Source of the DNA: Leucogyrophana mollusca
Lineage: Eukaryota; Basidiomycota; Agaricomycetes; Boletales
Direction of reading: 5' to 3'
Length of the DNA stretch: 64,000 nucleotides
NCBI GenBank assembly: GCA_021014945.1
Contig: MU266360.1
Coordinates: forward strand, 1-64,000
Positions 3,901-62,601 of this stretch are shown piece after piece. The number at the start of each line of letters is the position of its first letter. Position 1 is the first letter of the stretch. The notes under the pieces were generated by a model, which did not search any database, had not been told where the DNA came from, and saw nothing but the letters and a program-made list of their open reading frames with translations. The position numbers and the translations under genes were made by a program.

Positions 3901-5659
3901 CGAGCACAAATACGATCTCCTGGGACTTTGGACACCAGTCAGGCTGGACAGGTTATTCGACCCAACTTTGGTCGCGGCAACACGGAGGTGAAGATCATCG
4001 ACGAGTCAGCACCAAATTCGCCTGCAGGTGGTCCAGAAGAGCCCCCCTTACACGCGCCAGATGATGGTATCACATTAGCTGATATTCCGCAGCTCATGGA
4101 GGCCGCTCAGGCGCGTGAGCAGCAGCGCTCACTACCACGCCAGACCACGATACCCCATATGGCCGAACTTAGTGCGCTTGAGCTTGCTATTGTCAAACAC
4201 TCGGCTGTTCTTGCACTCCAGCGGTCGCCGCTGCGCGATCAGATTGATCTGGACGAGCTTCTAGAATTGGTGGAGATAAAGAAGGGCGGATTTTGGAATA
4301 AGCTATTCAAGGCCGGCGACAAGAAAAACGTCAAGAAAAAGGGTAAGCCGCGGTGTGCCGGGCCTAACGGAACGCCTAATTGACGATTTCGGTTAGGTGT
4401 CTTTGGCATCCCTCTTGAACTCTTGGTCGAGAAGGAAGGTTCCGATTCGCTCCTCGGCGCCACACGAGCAACCCTTAGAGTGCCGAGTTTCATTGATGAT
4501 GTCGTTTCTGCCATGAGGCAAATGGGTAAGCATGCACATTCTAGAGTGGCCTTGTGATTAATTAACTGGTGTTTCGTAGACATGTCTGTTGAAGGGATAT
4601 TCCGACGGAACGGGAACATCAGGCGTCTCAAGGATCTCGCGGACGCCATCGACCATGACCCGTCGTCTGTCGACCTCTCCCAGGACAATCCCGTACAACT
4701 CGCCGCCCTTTTGAAGAAATTCCTCCGGGAGCTACCTGAGCCTCTGATGACCTTCAAACTACATCGTTTGCTGATTGCGTCCCAAAGTGTGTCCGCTATT
4801 TCCCTTTTTGTGTCAGCACGTCTCAATAAGTCGTGAAGCTTTGCAACAGGAGGCAGACCGGAGAAGAGTACTTCATCTGGTTTCGATCCTCTTACCTAAG
4901 AGTCATCGAGATACCATGGAGGTTCTCTTTGTCTTCTTAAAATGGGTGGCCTCTTTCGCACATATGGACGAGTCCACTGGGAGCAAGATGGATCTACCGA
5001 ACTTGGCAACAGTGATTTGCCCTAGCATCTTGTATTCGCGAGGCCAAAACGCTGTGCGAGACGAGAGCTTCGGGGCAATCCGCGTTATCACCTCCTTGCT
5101 TGAAAATCAGGACGAGTTCTACACTGTACCCGAGGAGTTCCTGCCGATATTGCACGACCAGGAGTACTTTTCCAACAGCATGGAGTTGCCAAGCAAAGAC
5201 TTTATGAAGAAATGTGACACCTATATGCGCCTCAAAGCCAATGGGCCGTCGTCCATGGCTTTCATGGGATCGCCTGCCCAAGTCAGTTCACCCAGAATCT
5301 CTCCTCCTGGCGATCGCCCCGCTCTCATTACTACACCGAGCGAGCCCCAAGTGCGGAACGGTCGGCAACAATCGCCGCACGCGCATCCTGGGGTGGTACA
5401 CTCACCAATGTCTTATCCATCACCTGTGCATCCGGCCTCACTCTCGCAGGGCGTAGCTATGATACACGGACAGTCAATGCCAAGTCGTAATCCACAGTCC
5501 CAAGAGTCCGAGTGGTCCGCACCGCAGCGACCTACTAATGGCACATCTACACCTTCGCCTCGGCCATCATCTTACGTTCCGCCACGGCTAAGTGGCGAAC
5601 AACCTCAACTCTCTCCTCCGAATGGTCACCAGCCTACTGCGGTACGGCAACGTACATAA
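967..5659 (+). CDS. LRG1: LIM-domain Rho GTPase-activating protein (LRG1-type)
   Basis: Predicted 1369-residue Rho-GAP. Exons: 967-1463, 1565-1652, 1702-1855, 1907-2136, 2192-2349, 2405-2583, 2634-3542, 3596-4342, 4397-4525, 4580-4788, 4850-5659; all junctions are GT-AG and the phases close. A Ser/Pro-rich N terminus (about 1-166) precedes LIM modules: CxxC at 168-171 with HLNC at 188-191, a second starting CAKC at 231, a third CAGC module that looks incomplete, and a fourth near 587-696 interrupted by a Lys-Glu run. The RhoGAP domain spans about 988-1200, with EGIFRRNG carrying the arginine finger (R1039). Several LIM domains plus a C-terminal RhoGAP is the yeast Lrg1 layout; Lrg1 is a Rho1 GAP in cell-wall control. 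The tail is Pro/Ser-rich. The exon 10 donor (AGT then GTGTCC) is the least certain junction. Confidence 0.9.
3235..3285 (+). repeat. Lys-Glu coding low-complexity run
   Basis: Purine-only tract of repeated GAGAAG/GAGAAA units inside the LIM-RhoGAP coding exon. It encodes alternating Glu and Lys and splits the fourth LIM-like module, probably as a charged helical insertion. Confidence 0.85.
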
Positions 5660-20163: not shown

Positions 20164-20316
20164 GCGCGGAGAAACGAACTGGAGGCACTTGACACCACCT
20201 TGCAACTTCAATAGAGCTATATGCATTACGACTGCAATACACGAGATGGAATAATCGATACATGATTGGATTGTCGGTGTGGAATAGGACTGAGGGATTT
20301 AAATCCACGATACATG

Positions 20317-21401
20317 CTATGGGTCTCCGAGTATCTCTTTAAGCCCTGTGGAGGAGAATCAGTATCGAGGAGTGGATCTTGGCCGCAACACTCACTCTCA
20401 ATTATATCCAGGTATGCAGTGGAGGCTGGGCTTTCTGGATACTCATCCAAGAAGCTGACACCGTAATCCGCACTCTTCCCGATTCTCGGGTCGAGCGGCA
20501 CCTTTCCTAACAGTTCAACACCGGTCTCCCGTGCAAGTCGCTCTGCCCCACCGGTACTGGGCCTAAATATCTGGCTTTCCGTTTTACAACCGGGGCACAC
20601 AAACCCAGACATATTTTCCACGAGCCCCAGCACCCTTATCCCAACCTTCCGACAGAAGTCGATCTCTCTTCTCACATCCTGCAGCGCGACCTCTTGTGGC
20701 GTAGTGACGAGAACAGCGCCGTCTATTCCACTCTCTTTGAGGTATTGCACGACGCTAAGATGTTCGTCTGACGTCCCTGGGGGTGTGTCAATCACCAAAT
20801 AATCGAGGTCACCCCAGTCGACGTCCTTGAGAAACTGAGCGATGAGTCCATTCTTCTTGGGACCGCGCCACATGATAGCGTCCCGGGACGATGGAAGCAT
20901 GAAACCGACGGACATGACACCGAGGTTATCCTGCACGTAGACAGGGGACCATCCGGAGGAGGAAGAGTGGACTTGCTCTGAAGCGATACCGAGAATGGTG
21001 GGTATCGAGGGACCACAGATGTCAACATCCATTATACCGGTTTGCAGTTGCTCATCCGCTGCGAACGCCCATCCGAGCTGTGCGGTAAACGTCGACTTTC
21101 CGACACCGCCCTTGCCGGACAGGACGAGAATCTTCCGCTTGACGGAATTCATCCGCTCGCGGATAAACGGAAGGGCAGGGTCAGGGCCTTTAGGTGTGCT
21201 TGATGCGCATATCTCTTGATTCGCACATCCATTGCAGGCGTCTGCTTTGCCTGCTAGCTCGGATTCCGTACCCTAAGATATGTGCTAGATTAGCATCTTA
21301 ACATTCTCAGGGACCTTTGGGCTTACCGGGCAGTGCTCCGGAGCATTTGATGGGACAGATAATGGATTTGGCACCTGAACTGGCTTTTGCACAGCGAGCA
21401 T
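20317..21401 (-). CDS. NBP35: Cytosolic Fe-S cluster assembly factor NBP35
   Basis: Predicted 326-residue P-loop scaffold ATPase of cytosolic iron-sulfur assembly. Exons in transcript order: 21401-21327, 21272-20396, 20345-20317; total 981 nt. The N-terminal cysteine motif is CX13CX2CX5C ([15 protein letters not shown], then NGC, then ANQEIC), which separates NBP35 from CFD1. The Walker-type loop GKGGVGKST follows, then [21 protein letters not shown] and the CPGC pair in SGFVCPGC. Splicing the last 29 nt gives the C terminus [11 protein letters not shown]; reading through that intron would add about 50 non-homologous residues. Convergent with the MAP kinase gene, 153 bp between stop codons. 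Confidence 0.95.
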
Positions 21402-33639: not shown

Positions 33640-34569
33640 GATTTTGGTAAGGATGAGCGGAGTAAGTGTTAAGTCGGAGTTAAGCGGTAGGAACGGGTAT
33701 ATAAACCTTCACACGATGTATGTCTCCTTACGATTTAATGTTCAGCTGGTTTTCTTTTTCTACGCGTCACCCTCTGTTCAATACTTTCATCTCAAGTGAG
33801 TATCTTTCTGGGTTGTCCTGTTATTTTTCTTCCTCTAGGCGGTGATTCCGCGCCGTTTGATACTTTATATGATGTTTGAGGCATTTGGCTTTACGCAGGA
33901 GCGCACCCTGCACTGCAGAAACCTATCTCAGCTACCTTCGGGGGAGCTGCTTTGGCAGTGTCCACCCGCTATTCTGATCTCATTTTATCTTTCGCATCAT
34001 AACAAACCCATATCGTTGATCATTCAAGCTAACAAATGTCTTTCGCAGTATCCTCGATTACCCGGTGGACTAAGCAACGTTAACGACAGTTTGGAGTTCT
34101 TCATGATTGTATCGCTACATATGTCTGAATTACATGTACACTTCATCTTAATTCAGCGGCGCACTGCGTTCGCACTGTGTGCTGGGACCTGCCTGCACAC
34201 AAGCTCGTCGATCTGAAATATTTTCAGCGACTTCGGCTAAAAAAAAGTTTCGAAGAACAGCCTTATGGCAAGAGCATAAAACCCCTTGCACGTTGAACCA
34301 GATTGAACTCTGATCGAGATCCTGCGCCTCACTGACCAGCACAACGACTGTGGGTAGCCAAAAGGCTTTTTGTTGGAAGTGGACGGACTCACCAACACAT
34401 TATTCAGGCCTCACCTTACAACACGCCACGCCCGACTCCATCCTAGATAATAACCAGTGCAGCGTCGTCGGTGGTGAGCCATCTTCTTCTGGCCACATTG
34501 ACGCACTTTGACCATCGTCGACGTGGTAGTACAGTAATTCGCGCAGCTCAAGACTATCGCAGTTCTACG
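33640..34569. other. Divergent region TAF10 / F-box gene
   Basis: 930 bases. A 125-codon plus-strand frame (33842-34216) has no features I can support. It likely contains the TAF10 promoter near 33.65-33.75 kb and the F-box gene upstream region. Confidence 0.45.
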
Positions 34570-36411
34570 ATGTATGACCCGCAGATCTCATTCGAGGACG
34601 CCACAGCGCCTGTCGTTCCAGATGCCGTCGCGCAAGCTCAAGCGCATATCGACAAGGAGCTTGAAGCGCTCGTGCGACGCATGGGAGACCTTCGAAGCCA
34701 ACGAAACACGCTCTCCCGCATATCATCTTTGCCACCCGAGCTTCTTGCAGCTGTCTTCGTACAGTATGCTCGCCAGTCCTTCTCGGAAACCCATCAGCCG
34801 TCATACTATAATCCCAAAATCGCTAAGCAATTGATGTGGACCAAAGTCACGCATGTCTGTCGCCACTGGCGTCAGGTCGCTCTTTCGTGCCCTGCTCTTT
34901 GGACCTTCCTCGTGTTCACATCGTCTCCCTGGTTAAAAGAGATGCTAGTCAGATCAAAGATGGCGCCCTTGGTCATCGACGTAGACTTGGCACGCATCCA
35001 GTCTGATGTTGAGGATGCCGTCGCAATGGCACTCGAACATTCTACACGTGTGCGCGATCTTCGGCTCGTTGCGCCAAAAGGGGTGATGGAGGGACTTTTC
35101 GCACCCCTCACCGCCCCTGCGCCGTTACTAGAGTCGTTCACCGTATCGAATAAGCCCGGCACCATAAATTTTGCCCTCCCAACCACATTATTCGGCGGGG
35201 AAGCACCTCGCCTTCGCAAAATCGAGTTGTTCAAATGTGATATTGCGTGGCCCGCACCTCTCCTTGTCGACCTTGTTCATCTCGATATCAACTACCTCGA
35301 TGCAGGTTCCCGCCCTACCATGAAACAGCTGCTTTCAAGTCTCGGTCGTATGCCAGCGCTGCACACTCTTTTATTAGAAGACGCTCTTCCGCCCGTTCCT
35401 TTGGCAGCCAGTGTCTCTTCTACCGTAGGCTCTGATCCACAAGTTGCTCTTTCCGCTCTTACACGACTTCACCTCGGGGGCAGCGTGTTGGAGTGCGCGG
35501 ATCTCCTCCGTCGTCTTAGCTATCCCTCCGGCATTGCGCTCAGCCTTAAATGCAAAGCCCCCACCACACTCGGGGTTGACTTTTCTTGCCTGTTCCCATT
35601 CATATCTGGAGTGAGGTGCGGAACCGACGACTCCTCATCACCATCTGTTGAAGCTGCGACGTTTCGCTCTGTGGTCATTTGCGGTGGCCATCGAAGTGCA
35701 TTGATCCGATGCAGCACGTCGGACACCTCTTCAGTATTCAACTGGCCTTCTTCGGACAAGGACCACTGGGCTAGGGGAGCCCACCTTGCGCTTGACATTT
35801 CTTGGCAAACACCGTGCAAACTGGGACCGATCTCGAGCATCTGCCGTGTCCTCCCGCTATCCAACGTTCAAACTATCTACGTGGACAGGCATACAGAACT
35901 TCCGGAGGCGTTCTGGCTGGATGGTTTAAGTGGTGCTCGCGGGTTGAGGTCACTCTTCCTCACTGGGTCGGACGTCAGTGGCCTAGTGAAAGCATTGGCC
36001 AGAGATGGTCCGGAAGCGTATAATGGACTCACAGGGACGACGCAGACCGAAACGATCTTTGCCCCCGCCCTGACTGCCCTTGAACTTGAGGACGTCGAGT
36101 TCGACGAAACGCACGACGTAGTGATGGGTTTCAGGGGGGCAAAGCCGACAGATCTGCGCGACGCTCTCATTGTGCGCGCAAACCAAGGCGTGGACCTACA
36201 AAAACTAGGGATGTCGAACTGCCGCCACGTGTTTGAGGAAGACGTAGATTTACTGGAAGAAGTGGTGGTTGACTTTAAGTGGGACGGGATCGAACGGTAC
36301 GATGGCGATTCGGATGATGAAGGCGAAGACGATGAAGACATGTACTATGGGGATGGTTTATATGGTGCCTATGACTCTGACGAGGGTGGTTCTCTTCATT
36401 TAGGTTGGTAA
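34570..36411 (+). CDS. F-box protein, paralogue A
   Basis: Single-exon gene, 613 residues. After an acidic N terminus and a coiled-coil-like helix (AQAHIDKELEALVRRMGDL), an F-box-type segment reads ISSLPPELLAAVF, then WTKVTHVCRHWRQVALSCPALW, the pattern of basidiomycete F-box proteins that bind Skp1 in SCF ubiquitin ligases. The rest is a leucine-rich repeat-like array (LTRLHLGGSVLECADLLRRL, LTALELEDVEF). The C terminus is Asp/Glu/Tyr-rich. The open frame extends upstream, but 34570 is the first ATG. Paralogue B lies at 39428-41326 in opposite orientation. Such F-box genes form large variable families in Agaricomycetes. Confidence 0.82.
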   Translation: MYDPQISFEDATAPVVPDAVAQAQAHIDKELEALVRRMGDLRSQRNTLSRISSLPPELLAAVFVQYARQSFSETHQPSYYNPKIAKQLMWTKVTHVCRHWRQVALSCPALWTFLVFTSSPWLKEMLVRSKMAPLVIDVDLARIQSDVEDAVAMALEHSTRVRDLRLVAPKGVMEGLFAPLTAPAPLLESFTVSNKPGTINFALPTTLFGGEAPRLRKIELFKCDIAWPAPLLVDLVHLDINYLDAGSRPTMKQLLSSLGRMPALHTLLLEDALPPVPLAASVSSTVGSDPQVALSALTRLHLGGSVLECADLLRRLSYPSGIALSLKCKAPTTLGVDFSCLFPFISGVRCGTDDSSSPSVEAATFRSVVICGGHRSALIRCSTSDTSSVFNWPSSDKDHWARGAHLALDISWQTPCKLGPISSICRVLPLSNVQTIYVDRHTELPEAFWLDGLSGARGLRSLFLTGSDVSGLVKALARDGPEAYNGLTGTTQTETIFAPALTALELEDVEFDETHDVVMGFRGAKPTDLRDALIVRANQGVDLQKLGMSNCRHVFEEDVDLLEEVVVDFKWDGIERYDGDSDDEGEDDEDMYYGDGLYGAYDSDEGGSLHLGW

Positions 36412-39427: not shown

Positions 39428-41326
39428 TCACCAGCCGCCAGGGTACGACCAGCCCAAAGAAAAGGACGCATTGTCGTCCGAGTCATCGCAGCTCCCTGTA
39501 CTACCATCCAGGAACATGTCGTCTTCATCTTCTTCGCCTCCCTCCTCCGAATTTCCATCGCACCGTTCGACCCCGTCCCAGTGAAAGTCGACCACAACTT
39601 CTCCCAATAAACCCGCGTCTCTCTCACACAGGTGGTGGCAATTCGACATCCCTAGTTTTTGTATATTCACACCTCGGTTTGCTCGAACAATGAGAGCGTC
39701 GCGCAGATCCATCGGTTTTACGCCCCTGCGTCCCAATCCAACATCATTCGCCCCGTCGAACTCGACGTCCTCAAGTTCAAGGGCAGTCAGGGCGGGGGCA
39801 AAGATCGTTCTGGTCTGTATCGTCCCAGCGAGCCCATTACACGCTTCTGGGCCATCTCTGGCCAAAACTTCCACTAGGCCACTGACATCCGACCCAGTGA
39901 GGGTGAGTGTCTCCAACGCGCAAGCGCTACTCAAAGAATCCAGCCAGAAAGCCTCTGGGAGCTCTGTACGACCGTTCACGTGGATACTCCGAACGTTGGA
40001 CAGCGGTAGGACATGGCAGATGCACGAAATCGGTTCCAGGTTGGACGGCGTTTGCCAGGCAATTTCGAGCGCAAGCTGCACTGCGTCAGACCAGTGGTTC
40101 TTGTCTGGGAAAGGCCAGCTAACCTCCGAAGGCGGGGAATCTGAAGTGCTGCATCGGATAAGCATGACACGACTGCCATTGCAAGGACCGGTACATATGG
40201 CCATCGAACGGAGAGTGACAGCTTCGGCACCGGAGGATGAGGAATTATCAACATCGGTACCGCCTCCTATGGAGGAGACGTAGGGGAGCAGACAAGGAAA
40301 GTTGGTCTCAAATGTACCGGGGCCTTTACATTTGAGGCTGAGTGCAGCATTTGCGGGGTAGTTGAGATGGGCGAGGAGGTGGGCGCACTCTAATACGCTC
40401 CCCGCGAGGTGAAGCCGTGTGAGAGTGGGAAGATTAACTTGGGGAACAGAGCCCTTAGTTGCAATTGAAGAGGCGGTGGCTGTCGACGGAAGGAGCGGTA
40501 GAGCATCCTCCAACGATAGAGTGCGCAATGCTGGCATACGGCTGAGAGTTGTAATAAATTCCGTCACGGTGGGGCGTGAAACGGCGAGGTAGCTGATGTC
40601 AAGTTCGACAAGGCCGGCGAGGAGGGGCGAGGACCATGCAATGGCGCATCCAAGCATCTCTACTCTGCGAAGGCGGGGAGTTCCCCCACTGAACAATGTA
40701 ACTGGGAGAAAACCGGTTCCGGCTGGATCTGAATTTCCTACGGCGAGTGTGTTCAACAAGGCGAGCGATTCCAGGGCTGGAGCAGCGGTGGTAAGCGGCC
40801 TTGTGAGCCCCTCTATTATCTCCTTCGACGCAACAAGCCGAAGCTCCCGCACACGCGCGGCATGCTTGAGGGCCTTTGAGACGGCATTAATAACCTTTGG
40901 GCCCTTGTTAGTCAAGTCTACATCAATGACCAAGGGCCCCATTTTTGATCTGGCCAGCATCGCCTCTGACCAGGCGGGTGTAAATGTCAGAGTAGTCCAA
41001 AGAGAGGGGCGCGAAAGAGCGACCTGACGCCAGTGACGACAGACATGTGTGACCGTGGTCCACACCCATGGTGTGTGCGTGTCGACATAAATCCTCCGAT
41101 GGTAGTTTGGATGGGGTGGACAGGAGGAGTACATGAAGATGGTTTCAAGAAGCCCGGGTGGCAAAGTCGATATAGGGGAGAACGTATTTCGTTGGGCTCG
41201 CAGGGCACGCATCCGTCGCGCAAGCGTTTCAAGCTCTTGGTCGATCTGCTCCTGAGCCTGCACGGCGACACCTTGAAGAACAGGTACAGTGGCGTCCCTA
41301 TCCGGGGAGGACGATGGATCCCACAT
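39428..41326 (-). CDS. F-box protein, paralogue B
   Basis: Single-exon gene on the minus strand, 632 residues from the ATG at 41326, chosen because MWDP aligns with MYDP of paralogue A. An upstream in-frame ATG at 41380 would add 18 residues. The F-box segment reads ISTLPPGLLETIF, then WTTVTHVCRHWRQVALSRPSLW. The LRR-like array and acidic C terminus follow paralogue A, with near-identical blocks APALTALELEDVEFD, LRDALIVRAN and QKLGMSNC. It faces paralogue A across the phosphatase gene, so the two form an inverted pair. Probable role: substrate adaptor of an SCF ubiquitin ligase. Confidence 0.82.
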   Translation of the reverse strand: MWDPSSSPDRDATVPVLQGVAVQAQEQIDQELETLARRMRALRAQRNTFSPISTLPPGLLETIFMYSSCPPHPNYHRRIYVDTHTPWVWTTVTHVCRHWRQVALSRPSLWTTLTFTPAWSEAMLARSKMGPLVIDVDLTNKGPKVINAVSKALKHAARVRELRLVASKEIIEGLTRPLTTAAPALESLALLNTLAVGNSDPAGTGFLPVTLFSGGTPRLRRVEMLGCAIAWSSPLLAGLVELDISYLAVSRPTVTEFITTLSRMPALRTLSLEDALPLLPSTATASSIATKGSVPQVNLPTLTRLHLAGSVLECAHLLAHLNYPANAALSLKCKGPGTFETNFPCLLPYVSSIGGGTDVDNSSSSGAEAVTLRSMAICTGPCNGSRVMLIRCSTSDSPPSEVSWPFPDKNHWSDAVQLALEIAWQTPSNLEPISCICHVLPLSNVRSIHVNGRTELPEAFWLDSLSSACALETLTLTGSDVSGLVEVLARDGPEACNGLAGTIQTRTIFAPALTALELEDVEFDGANDVGLGRRGVKPMDLRDALIVRANRGVNIQKLGMSNCHHLCERDAGLLGEVVVDFHWDGVERCDGNSEEGGEEDEDDMFLDGSTGSCDDSDDNASFSLGWSYPGGW

Positions 41327-42991
41327 CACAGCACGGCGATAATATTGATCTGCCAAGTAGGCAATTGTCAAAAACGTCATTGCGACCAGGGAGGGAGGTA
41401 CTCACCACTGTCGACGTTATCTCGGTGCCCAAGTATGTAGCGTACAGTTGATAAAATGTCGACGAAGCGTGTATAGGGTCTGCATGATGGTTTACACTAT
41501 ATAAGATTCGGGCGCCTTTTCAGCCCGAGATCCACTTGGCTGCCAAGCGGCTAGGTCCTGTAATCGCGCGTGCTCCGTCCATGATCCTGGAGTAAGTTGA
41601 CCCACATGTTGTGCAGAGTGCATATGTATGCGGCACGTCTTTTCTTCAGAACGAAGTGCAACCGCCAATGAAGTGGGTCTCGTATTATCTCCGGTATCGC
41701 AACAGGATGGAAGTGTACTCCTGGATCACGCGTCACACAGTACTGACGGCGCGAATCGCGCAGGGACTTGTGGACATACCCTGGATATGGGAAGTTGGGC
41801 TTCGGGGTGGGTGTGGGGCGCGCAACAGTGTCCAAGGCCAAGTAAGATTCGGTGATGTCCCCGATGGGTTCAATTTTGGCAAGTACAGGCGGGTTCCCGC
41901 CTGTTCCAGTATCTGCATCACTCAGTGGCACTTTCCGCCAATTATGCGCTGTGACAACTAGTGTACACTGAAGTACACTGACAGGCAATTTTACAGCGTT
42001 TAGCTTAGTCAGCGGAAATTTCCTCAATTAACTTGGCTGAAGTACACTGACAGGCAATTTGTCCTCGGTCAAGATCGCTGGTCGGGGCCTCAGGACTGGT
42101 GGAATTGTAGCTAAAAATCGGCGTTTACATTGCGTTGGATTCCAGCTTAAAAAGGTCGTAGAATAGAACAGTACGCACACGATTGAATCGATTCTGGTAT
42201 CATTGATTGTCACATGGCATATGTACTCGCCACGCCTATTTTGCTGTCGCGGCACAGTTACATGTCCGAGAGGAAGACTGAAACCAAAAGCTGTGCGAAC
42301 CTTGCGCGGCTCCGAAACAGAATCGACCGTTGACAGGCAGCTTGCCCCTTGGTCTCGACTAGATGCGCGTTTCAGGAAGTCCGAATAAATTCCGGTAAGT
42401 GGTTGTTCGAGGAAGCGGGCTCCCGACGGACTTTGATCGAAATTTGATCCGTGCTTCCTAGAACGGCTGACATCGAGACTACCTGCGGATATCGTCCAAA
42501 TATTAGCAAGGAGTTCGATAGGGCGCTGGTGTCTGGTGAAGAGCTCAACTGTCCTTGAAGCCCGTTGTAGTGTATCCACGACCGCCGAGTTGATGAACAA
42601 TTTTCATCCCAGCGAGAATAAAACCGGGGGCTATAAATCCTGGTAGCGATATATGGCCTGGTTTGTCGTGCTTTGCATGACCTCAGGAGTCTGAACAGCA
42701 CTGACCCCGCCACAGATGGCTTAAGTTATAACAGACTCAGCTCAGTATGGTCCTGGCCCTAGGGTGATTGGTGAAGGCTGTAGTTGTGGATATGTGCTCC
42801 ATATTCGAGGTAGCCGATTGCAAGTCGGATCTTACAGCATAGGGAATTCTGATTCAATTCTCAAAATCGTCAGTCCACAGAGATACGGCTTCCGCCCCAT
42901 GTGTACTATGGGCCTGGCCTGTATAACAACGTAGTGCAGGATTTGCTATGTCAGCATCGAGGTACAACACGCGATCCAGGGAAGCTCCCCT
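41327..42991. other. Unassigned 1.7-kb interval
   Basis: Two minus-strand open frames (41551-42027 and 42028-42600; the second starts with TTG) abut and each contains LPVSVLQ, because a 24-bp direct repeat lies in both. I recognise no family and found no convincing splicing. It could be a decayed gene or noncoding sequence. Opposite-strand frames at 41611-41961 are equally featureless. Confidence 0.4.
41968..42060. repeat. 24-bp direct repeat pair
   Basis: CTGAAGTACACTGACAGGCA followed by ATTT occurs at 41968-41991 and again at 42037-42060, start to start 69 bp. The first copy is also preceded by a partial GTACACTG, as in local slippage or tandem duplication. Confidence 0.85.
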
Positions 42992-44132
42992 TCACGCCAC
43001 CGCTCCGACCAAAGGAGGAACAGTGAACTTTGCGGCACACTCATCGAAGAGACTTGCTTTCGCGCTCAAATCGCTGACCATCGGGTGTGACGGGTGGGTC
43101 GTTGTGAGGCGGCTGTTCGGTTCAATATGTAGATGAGTATGACGGCGGATTTGGATCGTATTCCAATGAGCGGAAATATGATCATGTGATTTAAATATCA
43201 CGAACCTCCATGCCTCGTCCGCCTCGCTCTTCTTCCCCGCGCCTAGTCCAAGCGCAACGACGAGTGCGGCCAACACTTCAGCTGCACTGCTGGATTTGTC
43301 AGCTCCGCTTCGTTCCAGCACTGCGGTCGCTTCTTCCAAGTCACTGCGGCCAGCCGTGACTTCACCTTGCATGACCCGTGCGATTCCTCGGCCAACTAGC
43401 AGAGCAGGAGAAGAGACAGATGGGTTGGCGACCTGCTCGGTGTAAAAGGAGACGGCGGGGGTGTATGGCTCGCCTGAGATACCTGCAGAGCGTCGGTTAT
43501 AATGAAGCGAGTAGTGAGTATGAAAGAACCTACCTTGCGACCCCGTAACGAGACTGAGAGAGGCTTCGGCGAGTTGGAGGACGAGTGAGTCGGGGTTTAC
43601 TTTAAGAGCAGTGTCAAGGGTTTTTTGTGCTAGTGACGGCCGTGCAAGGGAGAGATATATTTGGGCCGTTATGGCTGCGCTGTACAAGGACGCACGTCAT
43701 TAATCGACCGTTGAAGGAAAGAAATAGGACATGCGCTTCGGTAGCATCCCTGCCTGCACCACTTAGCGTCTCGAGCGCCTCTTCAATTTCGCCCGCGCGG
43801 ACAAACGCAGTGGCGGCCAGGACCCTCACCATCTCCCTCTCCCACTCGGCTTCTTCCTCTTCCGCGCCTTCGATTTCGACACACAAGTCCCTCAGTGCTT
43901 CGAGCCCATCTTCACCATTCGCGAGGGCTGACACGGCGCGGAGAGCAAGGTTTTCGGTATCTTGTGGGAGGAAGGAGGGAGTGTCACCTAATGCGATGTG
44001 TGCTCGAGCTTTATAGAGGAGTGTCGGGGTGTAATCTGGAGAGTCGGGGGATGGGAGGGGCAGAGATGTCAGGGCTTGGTATGCGCCGAGGGTGAATTGC
44101 TGTTTTATATGGTAGACTTGTGACGATTCCAT
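42992..44132 (-). CDS. COPE: Coatomer subunit epsilon (COPI)
   Basis: Predicted 313-residue COPI vesicle coat subunit. Exons in transcript order: 44132-43735, 43679-43534, 43482-43206, 43112-42992; total 942 nt. The start MESSQVYHIKQQFTLGAYQA is family-typical, followed by TPR-like helices (YKARAHIALG, ENLALRAVSAL, AATAFVRAGEIEEAL, QIYLSLARPSLAQKTLDTAL) and the C-terminal HPMVSDLSAKASLFDECAAK that precedes the end of epsilon-COP proteins. The first intron (43734-43680) needs a GC donor, GCATGT: the only nearby GT donor gives the wrong phase. The last intron junction is chosen by phase. Divergent from the dioxygenase gene. Confidence 0.9.
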
Positions 44133-58222: not shown

Positions 58223-60046
58223 ATGTCCTCTCCGCTTTTCCTCGGTTTCGATCTCTCGACCCAGCAACTGAAAGCTATCATCATATCCGAGGACTCATCC
58301 ATCGTGCATGAATCTGCCGTGCACTTTGACAAAGACTTACCAGCGTATGGGACAGTCAACGGAGCCATACAAGGACCCGATGAAGGAGAAGTCACTTCCC
58401 CGGTTCAGATGTGGTTGGAAGCAATCGATCTAGTGATGGAGCGCGTCAAGAGTGCTGGTGTTGACCTCAGTGCCATTGCAGGCATCTCTGGTGCTGGTCA
58501 GGTCAGTCTTCAACGATTACGACATCGCTCGGCGTTTTGCTTAAATTGCCTTCAGCAACATGGCTCGGTTTATTGGTCGGAAGAGGGTGAAAAAGCCCTC
58601 GAATCCATGGACCCTAAGCGGTCACTTGCAGAAACTGGGCATTTGGCCCCCGGTGCATTCTCTTTGCCCAACGCGCCGATTTGGCAAGACTCCTCCACTA
58701 CACGCGACTGTCGTGATCTGGAAACGGCCATCGGTGGCCCTCAGGCTCTGGCAGACCTCACCGGAAGCAGGGCTTATGAGCGGTTCACAGGTCCCCAGAT
58801 AGCGAGGGTAGGTATTTAGATGATAGACTGGCCTCTGAGCCATATTGACTTCTCCGTTCCTCTTAGATCCGTCGTCTCAAGCCGGATGCATACCTGCGTT
58901 CCGCTCGTATATCTCTGGTCTCCTCTTTTCTCCCTTCCCTATTCCTTGGACATATCGCGCCTATTGAAATATCTGATGCCAGTGGCATGAACCTAATGAA
59001 CGTCCTGACCTGCAAGTGGGATGATGCACTTCTGGAAGCTTGTGGCGGGCCTGAACTTCGCGGGAAGATTGGTCCTGAGCCCGTGGCCGGTGGTACCGTG
59101 CTAGGGAAGATCTCGAATTGGTGGGTGGAGAGGTGGGGATTTGACCCAGGTGCGAGATTTGCCACGCCAACTAGATGTGCGATATTCTTATGCTTATCCT
59201 TCAACAGAATGCATCGTTGCACCGTTTACAGGTGATAACCCTGCAACCGTGGTCGCTCTGTCGGCTCCCGGAGATGCCCTTCTTTCACTCGGAACCTCAA
59301 CCACACTCCTGTTGTCCATCCCGCCAGCGGACACCGCTCCGAAGCGGTTCACCACTTCACACCTTCTCTCTCATCCCACGACCATCGAAGCTCAAATTGC
59401 CATGCTGTGCTACAAGAACGGCGCGTTGGCCAGAGAACAAGTTCGTAATCGTGATGCTGCGCAAGACTGGACTCGATACAATGAGCTGGTAGAGAGCTCG
59501 CCGGTTGGCAGCAATGGTCTCATGGGCTTCTACTTCCCACTCCCTGAGATCATTCCACCCAATGTCCAGGGCGAATTCGTGTTCTCCATGTCCGGAACAG
59601 GCGCACCTACTCTAGTGGACTCCGTGCCATCGGAAGCTCACCCTCGCGCCATCCTCGAATCCCAGTTCTTGTCCATCAAGTCCCGGATTGCTGCGATCCT
59701 CCCCCCGAATGCACCCCCGCTCCAGCGATTGATCGTCACTGGTGGCTCTTCTGCCAACCAGACCATCCGACAACTCGCAGCCGATCTCTTCGGCATGCGT
59801 GTGTATGTCGCAGAGTCGAAGGAAGCTGCAGGGACTGGCGGTGCCATTCTCGCTAAATTTGCATGGTGGAAGGACCAAAATGGTGGGGAGGGCACGTTTG
59901 AGGAAATGAGCTATGGTGACGTTGAACGGATGCGACTCGTCGCAGAACCGAAGGCCGAGGTTACGAAGGTATACGAGGGACTTGTGGAGACGTATCGCGC
60001 CTGCGAGGAACGTGTCGTTGCCATTTGCCGGAAGGATCAGGATTGA
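58223..60046 (+). CDS. XKS1: Xylulokinase
   Basis: Predicted 550-residue FGGY-family sugar kinase. Exons 58223-58501, 58556-58807, 58867-59149, 59208-60046 total 1653 nt. The phosphate-binding N terminus is LFLGFDLSTQQLKAIIISED. The sugar-binding part follows: ISGAGQQHGSVYW, then NAPIWQDSSTTRDC. Later motifs are ISDASGMNLMNVL, APFTGDNPATVVAL, LLSLGTSTTLLL, LIVTGGSSANQTIRQLAADL and a C-terminal GTGGAILA. It phosphorylates D-xylulose to xylulose 5-phosphate, feeding pentose from plant cell walls into the pentose phosphate pathway. The ATG has a strong context (CCACCATGT). The last intron must be removed to give DPECIVAPFTGDN. Confidence 0.95.
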
Positions 60047-60427: not shown

Positions 60428-62601
60428 ATGTCTGACATCCTCTCGACACCATCCGGGAAAAGAGCAGCGGTGGAGGCTCCCGAGTCATCAGACACGGCGA
60501 AGTACGCCAAAATCGATCACGAGGACGCCAAGATCGACGAGAGCATAGCGGACTCCCCCTCGTTGGAAACGGCAGAAATAAACGAGTCACAGAAAGGCGG
60601 TTCGAAGGAAGATAAACCTGCGCGTGCAGGGAAACGAGACGCTGGAGGCTGGCCGAAATCGCGCAAAGGTAAAGCAAAAGACACTAAAAACGTAGGCCGT
60701 CGCAGAGGCACGCGAAATGAAGAAGCCGCCTTGAGTCCAGACGCTGGCGAACCCTCAGGAGACCAAACACCCAAAGCTCCGAGATTGCCAAAAAGACAGT
60801 CCGCCCTGTTGATTGGATTTTGTGGGACGGGATGCAATGGAATGCAAATGTGCGCTTCCATACTCCCCATTTCACCTATCCTCCCGACGACCCTCGTCTC
60901 TTGCGCTCACAACTTACAATAGACAACCCGACGTCCGAACAATCGAGGGTGTCTTGTTCGAAGCTTTGGTCAGAGCAGGTGCTGTATCACAGGACAACGC
61001 CGATGACCCGGTGAAGGTGCCTACTCGGTACATACTGAACACCGTGTCATGGACTGAATGCATGCATGTCAGGTTAGCTTAAGTCGAGCTGCACGGACGG
61101 ATGCTGGTGTGCATGCAGCTGGAAACCTTGTTTCCATGAAGTTGATAACTACTATTCCGGGTGTGAAAGACTTCGTGGGGCGGGTAAACGAGGAACTTCC
61201 TCCAGAAATCCGCGTTTGGGGATATGTATGTTTTCAACCAGTGACATGGTGTACCTCTGACTGACAAGTAACCCACAGGGTCGCGTCCAGAATTCTTTCA
61301 ATGCACGAATGTTCGTTCTAGGAGGCCATGTCTCCTGCCACGCAGCTCCTAATTGTCACACACAGGTCGTGCGACAGTCGAAAGTACACCTATTTCTTTC
61401 CGACGTACTTGCTGATCCCGCCCAAGCCCGGTTCTGCATTTTATCGCTCTCGTCAGCAGCATGCCGAGTCTGTACAAGCCTCCACCGGTCTAGAAGGTGT
61501 CCCGCACCGGTTCTGGTCTTCCATCGATACTGAGTCATCGACTCATGACGATGACCTTCTCGCGAAGCGCAAATGGCGCATCGAGGGAGACCAGGTCGAG
61601 CTATTGCGCCAGACCGCGAAGAAATTCGAAGGCACGCATAACTTCCATAACTTTACTGTGGGTCGCGAGTTCGGTGATCGCAGTAGTCAACGGCACATGA
61701 AGAAGATAGAGGTCAGGACACTCCTTTTCTCACTGTGCCACCTCACTCAAGCCCATTCACGAAAGATATCCGAGCCGGTCGTCTACGGTGATACAGAATG
61801 GATAAGTGTTCTCTTCCATGGCCAGAGTTTCATGCTCCACCAGGTGGGCTTCGAGTTGCTTACCGCCATTCTTTCCTAAGCGACCTTCATTTATCAGATC
61901 GTGAGTGTCCTCATACCGCCATAGAACTTTCTCAAACTCATCTATGAACTTCAGCGGAAGATGATGGCTGTCCTTGTTCTCTCCTGTCGCACAGGTACCC
62001 CGAGCGAGGTCGTCGACGAAGTGAGCAGTCATGCAGCGCAGCCGGAGCGAACTCTGATTACCCATTATCAAGCTTTATGGTCCTCGTATGGTCCTTGTCC
62101 CTAAAATGCCTGCTCTGGGTCTGTTACTGGAATATCCTATTTTCGACTCTTACAACAGAAAGGTCTCGTCGATAAACGAGAAGCTACAGCCGACACACCC
62201 AGAGTATCGACCTGTAATAGACTTCGAGGAACATCGACCTGCCATCGATGCATTCAAGCAAAAACATATCTACGAGAACATGCGGGCCATTGAAGATCGC
62301 GATGGGGTGTGAGTACAGTTAGTGGGTGATGCCGGGCGTGCTAACATGGAATAGATTCGACGCATGGGTCCGATCTATAGACATATATGGAGGGGATGAC
62401 TTGCTCTATCTGAATCCTAAGGGAATTATTCCGAGCGCGGCCGTCATGAAAAAGGGAGAGAGAAGGCAGAACGCCTTCCGGGAGAAAAGACGGTTCGACC
62501 TCACGAGCTTCGCACCAGAGAAGGACACTGCGTCAGCAGTAGACGACGAGGAAGCCGAAGAAGGAAGTTTATACAAAGATTTGGAGGACACAGAGGGATA
62601 G
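60428..62601 (+). CDS. PUS1: tRNA pseudouridine synthase 1 (TruA family)
   Basis: Predicted 558-residue nuclear RNA-modifying enzyme. Exons: 60428-60849, 60923-61016, 61073-61225, 61279-61310, 61366-61711, 61766-61843, 61898-61900 (3 nt), 61955-62020, 62073-62308, 62355-62601; total 1677 nt. The N terminus is a disordered basic/acidic region. Then GFCGTGCNGMQIQPDVRTIE, the catalytic RAARTDAGVHAAGN (Asp of RTD), RVQNSFNAR, SRKYTYFFPTYLL, GTHNFHNFT, FMLHQIRKMMAVLVLSCRTG and MPALGLLLEYPIFDSYN, all typical of Pus1. The Ile of HQIRKM is encoded by the 3-nt exon. An acidic C-terminal tail ends the protein. Convergent with RPB4. Confidence 0.93.
61898..61900 (+). other. PUS1: 3-nt microexon of PUS1
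   Basis: Reads TTTATCAG, then ATC, then GTGAGTGTCC, placing an ideal acceptor and donor one codon apart. ATC encodes the Ile of the conserved H-Q-I-R-K-M. The flanking introns are 61844-61897 and 61901-61954, both 54 nt. Skipping it keeps frame but deletes Ile. Confidence 0.8.

What the first reader, a model, noticed from the sequence alone, without database searches (positions are those of the whole stretch)
61898..61900. A 3-nt microexon (ATC) in PUS1
The conserved HQIRKM motif is recovered only if one codon, ATC, is spliced between two 54-nt introns: CAG|ATC|GTGAGT. A three-base exon is near the lower limit known in any eukaryote and standard gene finders would miss it.
Basis: partly seen in the sequence, partly recalled or inferred. 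Interest (0 to 1): 0.75.

Follow-up and report, generated by a model that had tools for sequence, protein, structure and literature searches.

The report
Three-base exon in mushroom PUS1 gene
A fungal gene for an RNA-modifying enzyme very probably carries an exon of only three bases that supplies one amino acid next to the enzyme's active site, and most of the mushroom entries examined in public databases leave that amino acid out.

Summary
Window 60428-62601 (+) is a ten-exon PUS1 gene of a mushroom-type basidiomycete; closest listed protein Hygrophoropsis aurantiaca (Boletales, 77%). Exon 7 is ATC, 61898-61900, between two 54-nt GT-AG introns. Six splice products keep the frame and the motif surroundings; only this one gives HQIRKM.

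Comparison supports it strongly. Ile is present in 27 of 27 yeast-like proteins and 12 of 12 unnamed-source (lgn) Agaricomycete-like proteins, nine of these from contigs under 2.5 kb. Of 156 NCBI Agaricomycete cluster representatives, 101 read HQRKM, 24 have Ile, 9 read HQVRKM and 22 are otherwise altered. HQRKM is scattered over the protein tree like shuffled labels and was checked in ten orders. Nine of nine models that keep Ile but lose RK read I-V-(S/R/G), as expected from Ile plus a translated GT donor. So the exon is probably conserved across Agaricomycetes and widely misannotated.

The Ile matches human PUS1 Ile294, between active-site His292 and Arg295. Constitutive inclusion, with the introns removed one after the other, is inferred. 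Three bases is not the lower limit: 1-nt exons are published in plants and Fusarium. No RNA from this species and no DNA from relatives was available.

The parts
60428..60849 (+). PUS1 exon 1 (start codon, N-terminal extension)
   Evidence: spliced model; C-terminal part aligned to yeast PUS1; start codon inferred
60923..61016 (+). PUS1 exon 2
61073..61225 (+). PUS1 exon 3, with catalytic ARTD motif (Asp182)
61279..61310 (+). PUS1 exon 4 (32 nt)
61366..61711 (+). PUS1 exon 5
61766..61843 (+). PUS1 exon 6, ends GQSFMLHQ
61844..61897 (+). 54-nt intron upstream of the microexon (CAG|GTGGGC ... TTATCAG|ATC; a CTAAG begins about 21 nt before its end)
61898..61900 (+). 3-nt microexon ATC, Ile376 (human PUS1 Ile294)
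61901..61954 (+). 54-nt intron downstream of the microexon (ATC|GTGAGT ... CTTCAG|CGG)
61955..62020 (+). PUS1 exon 8, begins RKMMAVL (Arg377)
62073..62308 (+). PUS1 exon 9
62355..62601 (+). PUS1 exon 10, with stop codon
   Evidence: only its first residues lie in the yeast match, the rest rests on the open frame and the full-length matches

Best explanation
The gene is the only detected copy of PUS1 (tRNA pseudouridine synthase 1, TruA family) in the assembly. Its pre-mRNA contains a constitutive 3-nt exon, ATC, that supplies the Ile of the HQIRKM motif at the start of the active-site helix. Three bases leave no room for two splice-site complexes side by side, so the two short introns are most likely removed one after the other by intron definition. 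Either order leaves usable sites: CAG|GTGGGC with TTATCAG|ATC, and ATC|GTGAGT with CTTCAG|CGG. The same arrangement is probably ancestral in Agaricomycetes, and most gene models join HQ directly to RKM because predictors do not place a 3-nt exon. Shown here: the sequence, the single splice solution that restores the motif, the pattern in relatives' proteins. Inferred: inclusion in RNA of this species, splicing order, the exon's presence and age in relatives, and loss of activity on skipping.
For: Sequence and splice solution. Yeast and human PUS1 have HQIRKM. Over 196 distinct proteins listed by three searches (each list cut at 120): 27 of 27 yeast-like and 12 of 12 lgn Agaricomycete-like proteins have Ile; NCBI Agaricomycetes 24 of 156 Ile, 101 HQRKM, 9 HQVRKM, 22 other. 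In the first list lgn 10 of 10 against NCBI 17 of 109 with Ile, Fisher p 8e-8. Close pairs differ at this residue: P0006/P0007 (Pisolithus) 89% identical, P0014/P0027 (Lactarius) 90%, P0039/P0028 (Pleurotus) 88%; for 7 of 10 lgn proteins the best other hit among the 120 reads HQRKM, for 3 it has Ile. HQRKM shows no phylogenetic signal: 45 changes against 45.2 shuffled. Nine of nine models with HQI not followed by RK or RL read IV(S/R/G), and HQIVSRKM is also an available wrong product in the window, through a GT at 61907. The Arg after the Ile is human R295, an active-site residue with H292 (PMC3983220, passages; numbering), and yeast R362, whose Ala change cuts activity about 75% (PMC10631681, passages; numbering).
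Against: No genomic DNA of a relative was available, so the exon in other species is inferred from proteins. Twenty-four NCBI proteins have Ile, some perhaps through intron loss, others through correct models; nine read Val, unexplained. With four classes the labels need 48 changes against 51.4 shuffled (8 of 60 shuffles as low), a slight clustering. The downstream intron has no CTRAY branch motif in the simple scan, only CTCAT.
Confidence: 0.92

Rival explanations
1. A single 111-nt intron, 61844-61954, is removed and the protein truly reads HQRKM; the internal AG-ATC-GT is chance.
For: It is one of the six products; 101 of 156 NCBI Agaricomycete models read this way, including the closest listed relative.
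Against: 12 of 12 lgn Agaricomycete-like and 27 of 27 yeast-like proteins have Ile; HQRKM is scattered on the tree like shuffled labels; an Ile-coding 3-nt exon is seen in 1 of 461 comparable stretches, this one; it would shift an active-site Arg.
Confidence: 0.04
2. Inclusion is regulated: a measurable share of mRNA skips ATC in frame, giving a folded but inactive or altered PUS1 as a switch.
For: Skipping keeps the frame and uses the same outer donor and acceptor; a structure model of a natural HQRKM entry still forms the motif helix.
Against: No skipped form among 12 lgn proteins, though clustering at 90% could hide minor isoforms.
Confidence: 0.03
3. The second donor at 61907 is used, giving a 9-nt exon and HQIVSRKM.
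For: In frame; the same string stands in NCBI models P0012 (Artomyces pyxidatus) and P0160 (Marasmius crinis-equi).
Against: By the usual consensus (recalled) GTCCTC is a weaker donor than GTGAGT at 61901; it inserts two residues into a conserved motif; 0 of 12 lgn proteins have it.
Confidence: 0.01

Closest known systems
Single-nucleotide exon of CYP621A P450 genes in Fusarium (PMC12940212; parts 1 and 2 of 3 of the text read)
   Same: Fungal microexon inside a conserved motif, found because the motif breaks without it; combined intron more than twice the usual length; gene models wrong; reads support it there.
   Different: 1 nt, Ascomycota, one genus, a P450 of unknown function; here 3 nt, basidiomycete, a housekeeping enzyme, apparently class-wide, no reads seen.
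Conserved misannotated plant microexons such as APC11 and VPS55, 1 nt (PMC8831610, passages; PMC4674806, passages)
   Same: Ancient, missed by annotation, needed for the protein sequence; intron definition with one-after-the-other removal is proposed for APC11.
   Different: Plants; shown there by RNA-seq and RT-PCR.
3-bp microexon of Drosophila homothorax (PMC7392893, passages)
   Same: Exon of exactly three bases coding one residue.
   Different: Alternatively spliced from a 48-bp exon, in a region between domains; animal.
P450 microexons of Phanerochaete chrysosporium (PMC1184071, passages)
   Same: Basidiomycete, small introns of 45-55 bp, very small exons.
   Different: Shortest exon reported there 6 bp; a multigene family.

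Membership tests
PUS1 / TruA-family pseudouridine synthase | PseudoU_synth_1 domain (PF01416) | tested here: met
   51.5 bits against cut-off 23.3, residues 318-422
PUS1 / TruA-family pseudouridine synthase | Catalytic Asp in ARTD motif | tested here: met
   Asp182, the counterpart of human D146
PUS1 / TruA-family pseudouridine synthase | HQIRKM motif with His and Arg correctly spaced | tested here: met
   Met only with ATC included
PUS1 / TruA-family pseudouridine synthase | Pseudouridylation activity | not testable with these tools
   Needs an enzyme assay
Microexon (internal exon of 15 nt or less) | Flanked on both sides by complete GT-AG introns of normal size | tested here: met
   54 and 54 nt; other seven introns 46-73 nt
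Microexon (internal exon of 15 nt or less) | Present in mature mRNA of this species | not testable with these tools
   No RNA data; indirect support from lgn proteins of relatives
Microexon (internal exon of 15 nt or less) | Conserved in relatives | tested here: inconclusive
   Residue present in 12 of 12 lgn proteins, absent in NCBI models of ten looked-up orders; no relative's genomic DNA read
Stwintron (nested twin intron; definition from abstracts) | Internal intron splits a splice element of the external intron | tested here: not met
   In the model each intron has its own donor and acceptor and ATC stays in the coding sequence

The most novel reading that the evidence does not exclude
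The 3-nt exon is an ancient, class-wide control point: regulated skipping removes one residue beside the active-site Arg in frame and yields an RNA-binding but catalytically dead PUS1, so that pseudouridylation of tRNA and other RNAs in mushroom-forming fungi can be turned down by splicing.
Probability: 0.05. Interest if true: 0.75.

Novelty: new member of a known kind. Interest (0 to 1): 0.52.

Why it matters
If true it is a constitutive 3-nt exon in a fungal housekeeping enzyme, apparently kept across at least ten orders of Agaricomycetes. It also exposes a systematic database error: most of the mushroom PUS1 entries listed here lack or garble a residue beside the active-site Arg. The signature (a one-residue gap in a conserved motif, scattered over the tree, filled in transcript-like sequences) gives a cheap way to look for other tiny exons from protein databases alone, and the gene is a natural substrate for testing how very short exons are spliced by intron definition.

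Tried and rejected
Viral contigs: 21 stretches matched a pattern, none encoded a relative. Stwintron reading: rejected, since ATC remains in the coding sequence. Real evolutionary loss of Ile: not supported by the tree test. Retention of either intron: stops. A second PUS1 copy that could make the enzyme without the microexon: none found in the 32.3-Mb assembly, all 8 matches lie in this gene. Structure models of a natural pair, with Ile (P0006) and without (P0007): the motif helix forms in both; block confidence at the motif is 91 against 80, and around HNFHNFT 81-82 against 58-64, but the model without Ile is also lower overall (71.3 against 74.5) and the proteins differ elsewhere, so this is weak. 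Whether HQVRKM (9 of 156) is a real Val exon or an annotation choice could not be settled. The promoter scan uses a bacterial consensus and was ignored. The two later searches, meant to reach further, listed among named rows only what I recognise as Agaricomycetes and Saccharomycotina, so the age beyond Agaricomycetes is unknown. Each protein search listed only its best 120 of 973, 4478 and 1693 hits; entries are representatives of 90% clusters, not species. Class membership was looked up for ten species and is recalled from the genus names for the other NCBI rows; the grouping into yeast-like (74-100% identical to S. cerevisiae), lgn and NCBI was made by hand from the listings.

Full report
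What is there. The window lies on a 32.3-Mb, 545-contig assembly that is unnamed here. The gene at 60428-62601 (+) is PUS1: Pfam PF01416, best solved relatives yeast PUS1 7r9f/7r9g, then human PUS1 9h51, closest listed protein Hygrophoropsis aurantiaca at 77%. Ten exons and nine GT-AG introns of 46-73 nt give 558 residues. It is the only copy detected in the assembly: all 8 exon matches lie in this gene.

The microexon. The exon ending GQSFMLHQ stops at 61843 and the exon beginning RKMMAVL starts at 61955. The 111 nt between hold AG-ATC-GT exactly in the middle, making 54 + 3 + 54. Of the donor/acceptor combinations enumerated, six give a stop-free product with the motif surroundings intact and only one restores HQIRKM. 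Both introns contain in-frame stops if retained. Among 461 window stretches of 111 nt that start GT and end AG, an internal 3-nt exon of any sequence occurs in 29 and one coding Ile in 1, this site. The donor GTGAGT is the same as that of the gene's last intron.

Relatives. Three protein searches listed 196 distinct proteins; each list was cut at 120 rows and rows are representatives of 90% clusters. Ile is present in 27 of 27 yeast-like proteins, in 12 of 12 lgn-only Agaricomycete-like proteins and in the one Agaricomycete cluster with mixed sources, P0116. Of the 156 NCBI Agaricomycete proteins, 101 read HQRKM, 24 have Ile (one as HQIRLM), 9 read HQVRKM and 22 are otherwise altered. I treat lgn proteins as transcript-derived because nine of 12 have longest contigs under 2.5 kb and all align as full frames without intron-like inserts at the motif; strictly, only 4 of 12 have less spare sequence than the 497 nt of introns in the window gene, and three have longest contigs of 3.9-7.4 kb. 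Pairs 88-90% identical, one with and one without Ile, occur in what are by their named member Pisolithus, Lactarius and Pleurotus.

Why HQRKM looks like an artefact. If the residue had been lost in evolution, HQRKM should cluster on the tree. On a FastTree of the 169 basidiomycete-type proteins with the motif removed, and counting the 156 NCBI rows only, the HQRKM label needs 45 changes against 45.2 on average over 60 shuffles (31 of 60 at or below 45); Ile against not-Ile needs 21 against 22.5 (13 of 60 at or below); all four classes need 48 against 51.4 (8 of 60 at or below), a slight clustering that may reflect intron loss or annotation habits. Nine gene models keep Ile and then run on; all nine continue with Val, followed by Ser, Arg or Gly, as expected from an Ile codon followed by donors such as GTNAGN, GTNCGN or GTNGGN read as codons. 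One of the window's own wrong products is the same HQIVSRKM that appears in Artomyces pyxidatus and Marasmius crinis-equi. HQRKM entries were placed by taxonomy look-up in Boletales, Agaricales, Russulales, Polyporales, Hymenochaetales, Gloeophyllales, Gomphales, Geastrales, Hysterangiales and Sistotremastrales, one species each.

Function. By numbering from the human chain the Ile is Ile294, between His292 and Arg295, which are listed with D146 and Y201 as active-site residues (PMC3983220, passages). In yeast the following Arg and Lys are R362 and K363 by the numbering of the alignment; their Ala changes reduce activity by about 75% and 47% (PMC10631681, passages; that paper says they contact RNA and are not in the direct vicinity of the active centre). 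In a model of an Ile-containing relative the motif lies at the start of a helix, residues 371-387. Skipping would turn the start of this helix out of register; loss of activity is inferred.

Mechanism. Intron definition with sequential removal is inferred from the short introns and matches the proposal made for the 1-nt exon of Arabidopsis APC11 (PMC4674806, passages). Which intron goes first is open. The downstream intron's branch site is not obvious in a simple scan.

Novelty. Exons of 1-3 nt are known in plants, animals and, since 2026, Fusarium. I searched the held open-access library for microexon with fungi (25 of 61 listed), basidiomycete (9 of 9), Agaricomycetes (3 of 3) and pseudouridine synthase (4 of 4), for 3-nt, 3-bp and single-nucleotide exon phrases (23 of 23), for micro-exon, fungal, intron and stwintron (20 of 20), and for tiny or smallest exon with mushroom terms (none). 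No listed title or abstract start concerns this PUS1 exon; subscription papers are mostly not held. I class it as a new member of a known kind, of above-average interest because of its apparent age, its place beside the active site and the scale of the database error.

Noticed in passing
window 61279-61310: PUS1 exon 4 is itself only 32 nt, between introns of 53 and 55 nt.
   Followed up: no
P0002, P0018, P0040, P0042, P0048, P0055, P0079, P0105, P0109 (protein ids): Nine NCBI Agaricomycete PUS1 proteins read HQVRKM, in several distant genera; a real Val microexon or an annotation choice, unknown.
   Followed up: partly
P0101, P0118, P0127, P0134 and P0113, P0116, P0124 (protein ids): Several Coprinopsis-type proteins (P0135 is an exception) and the three Schizophyllum proteins listed have Ile; the flanking introns may have been lost there or the models are right.
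   Followed up: no
window 20229-21272 (-), 42995-43696 (-), 59105-60043 (+), 4775-5656 (+), 34447-36408 (+), 39431-41401 (-): Of ten other long open frames scanned, six match Pfam: NUBPL/ParA-type P-loop NTPase, coatomer epsilon, FGGY carbohydrate kinase C-terminal, RhoGAP and two F-box-like domains.
   Followed up: no
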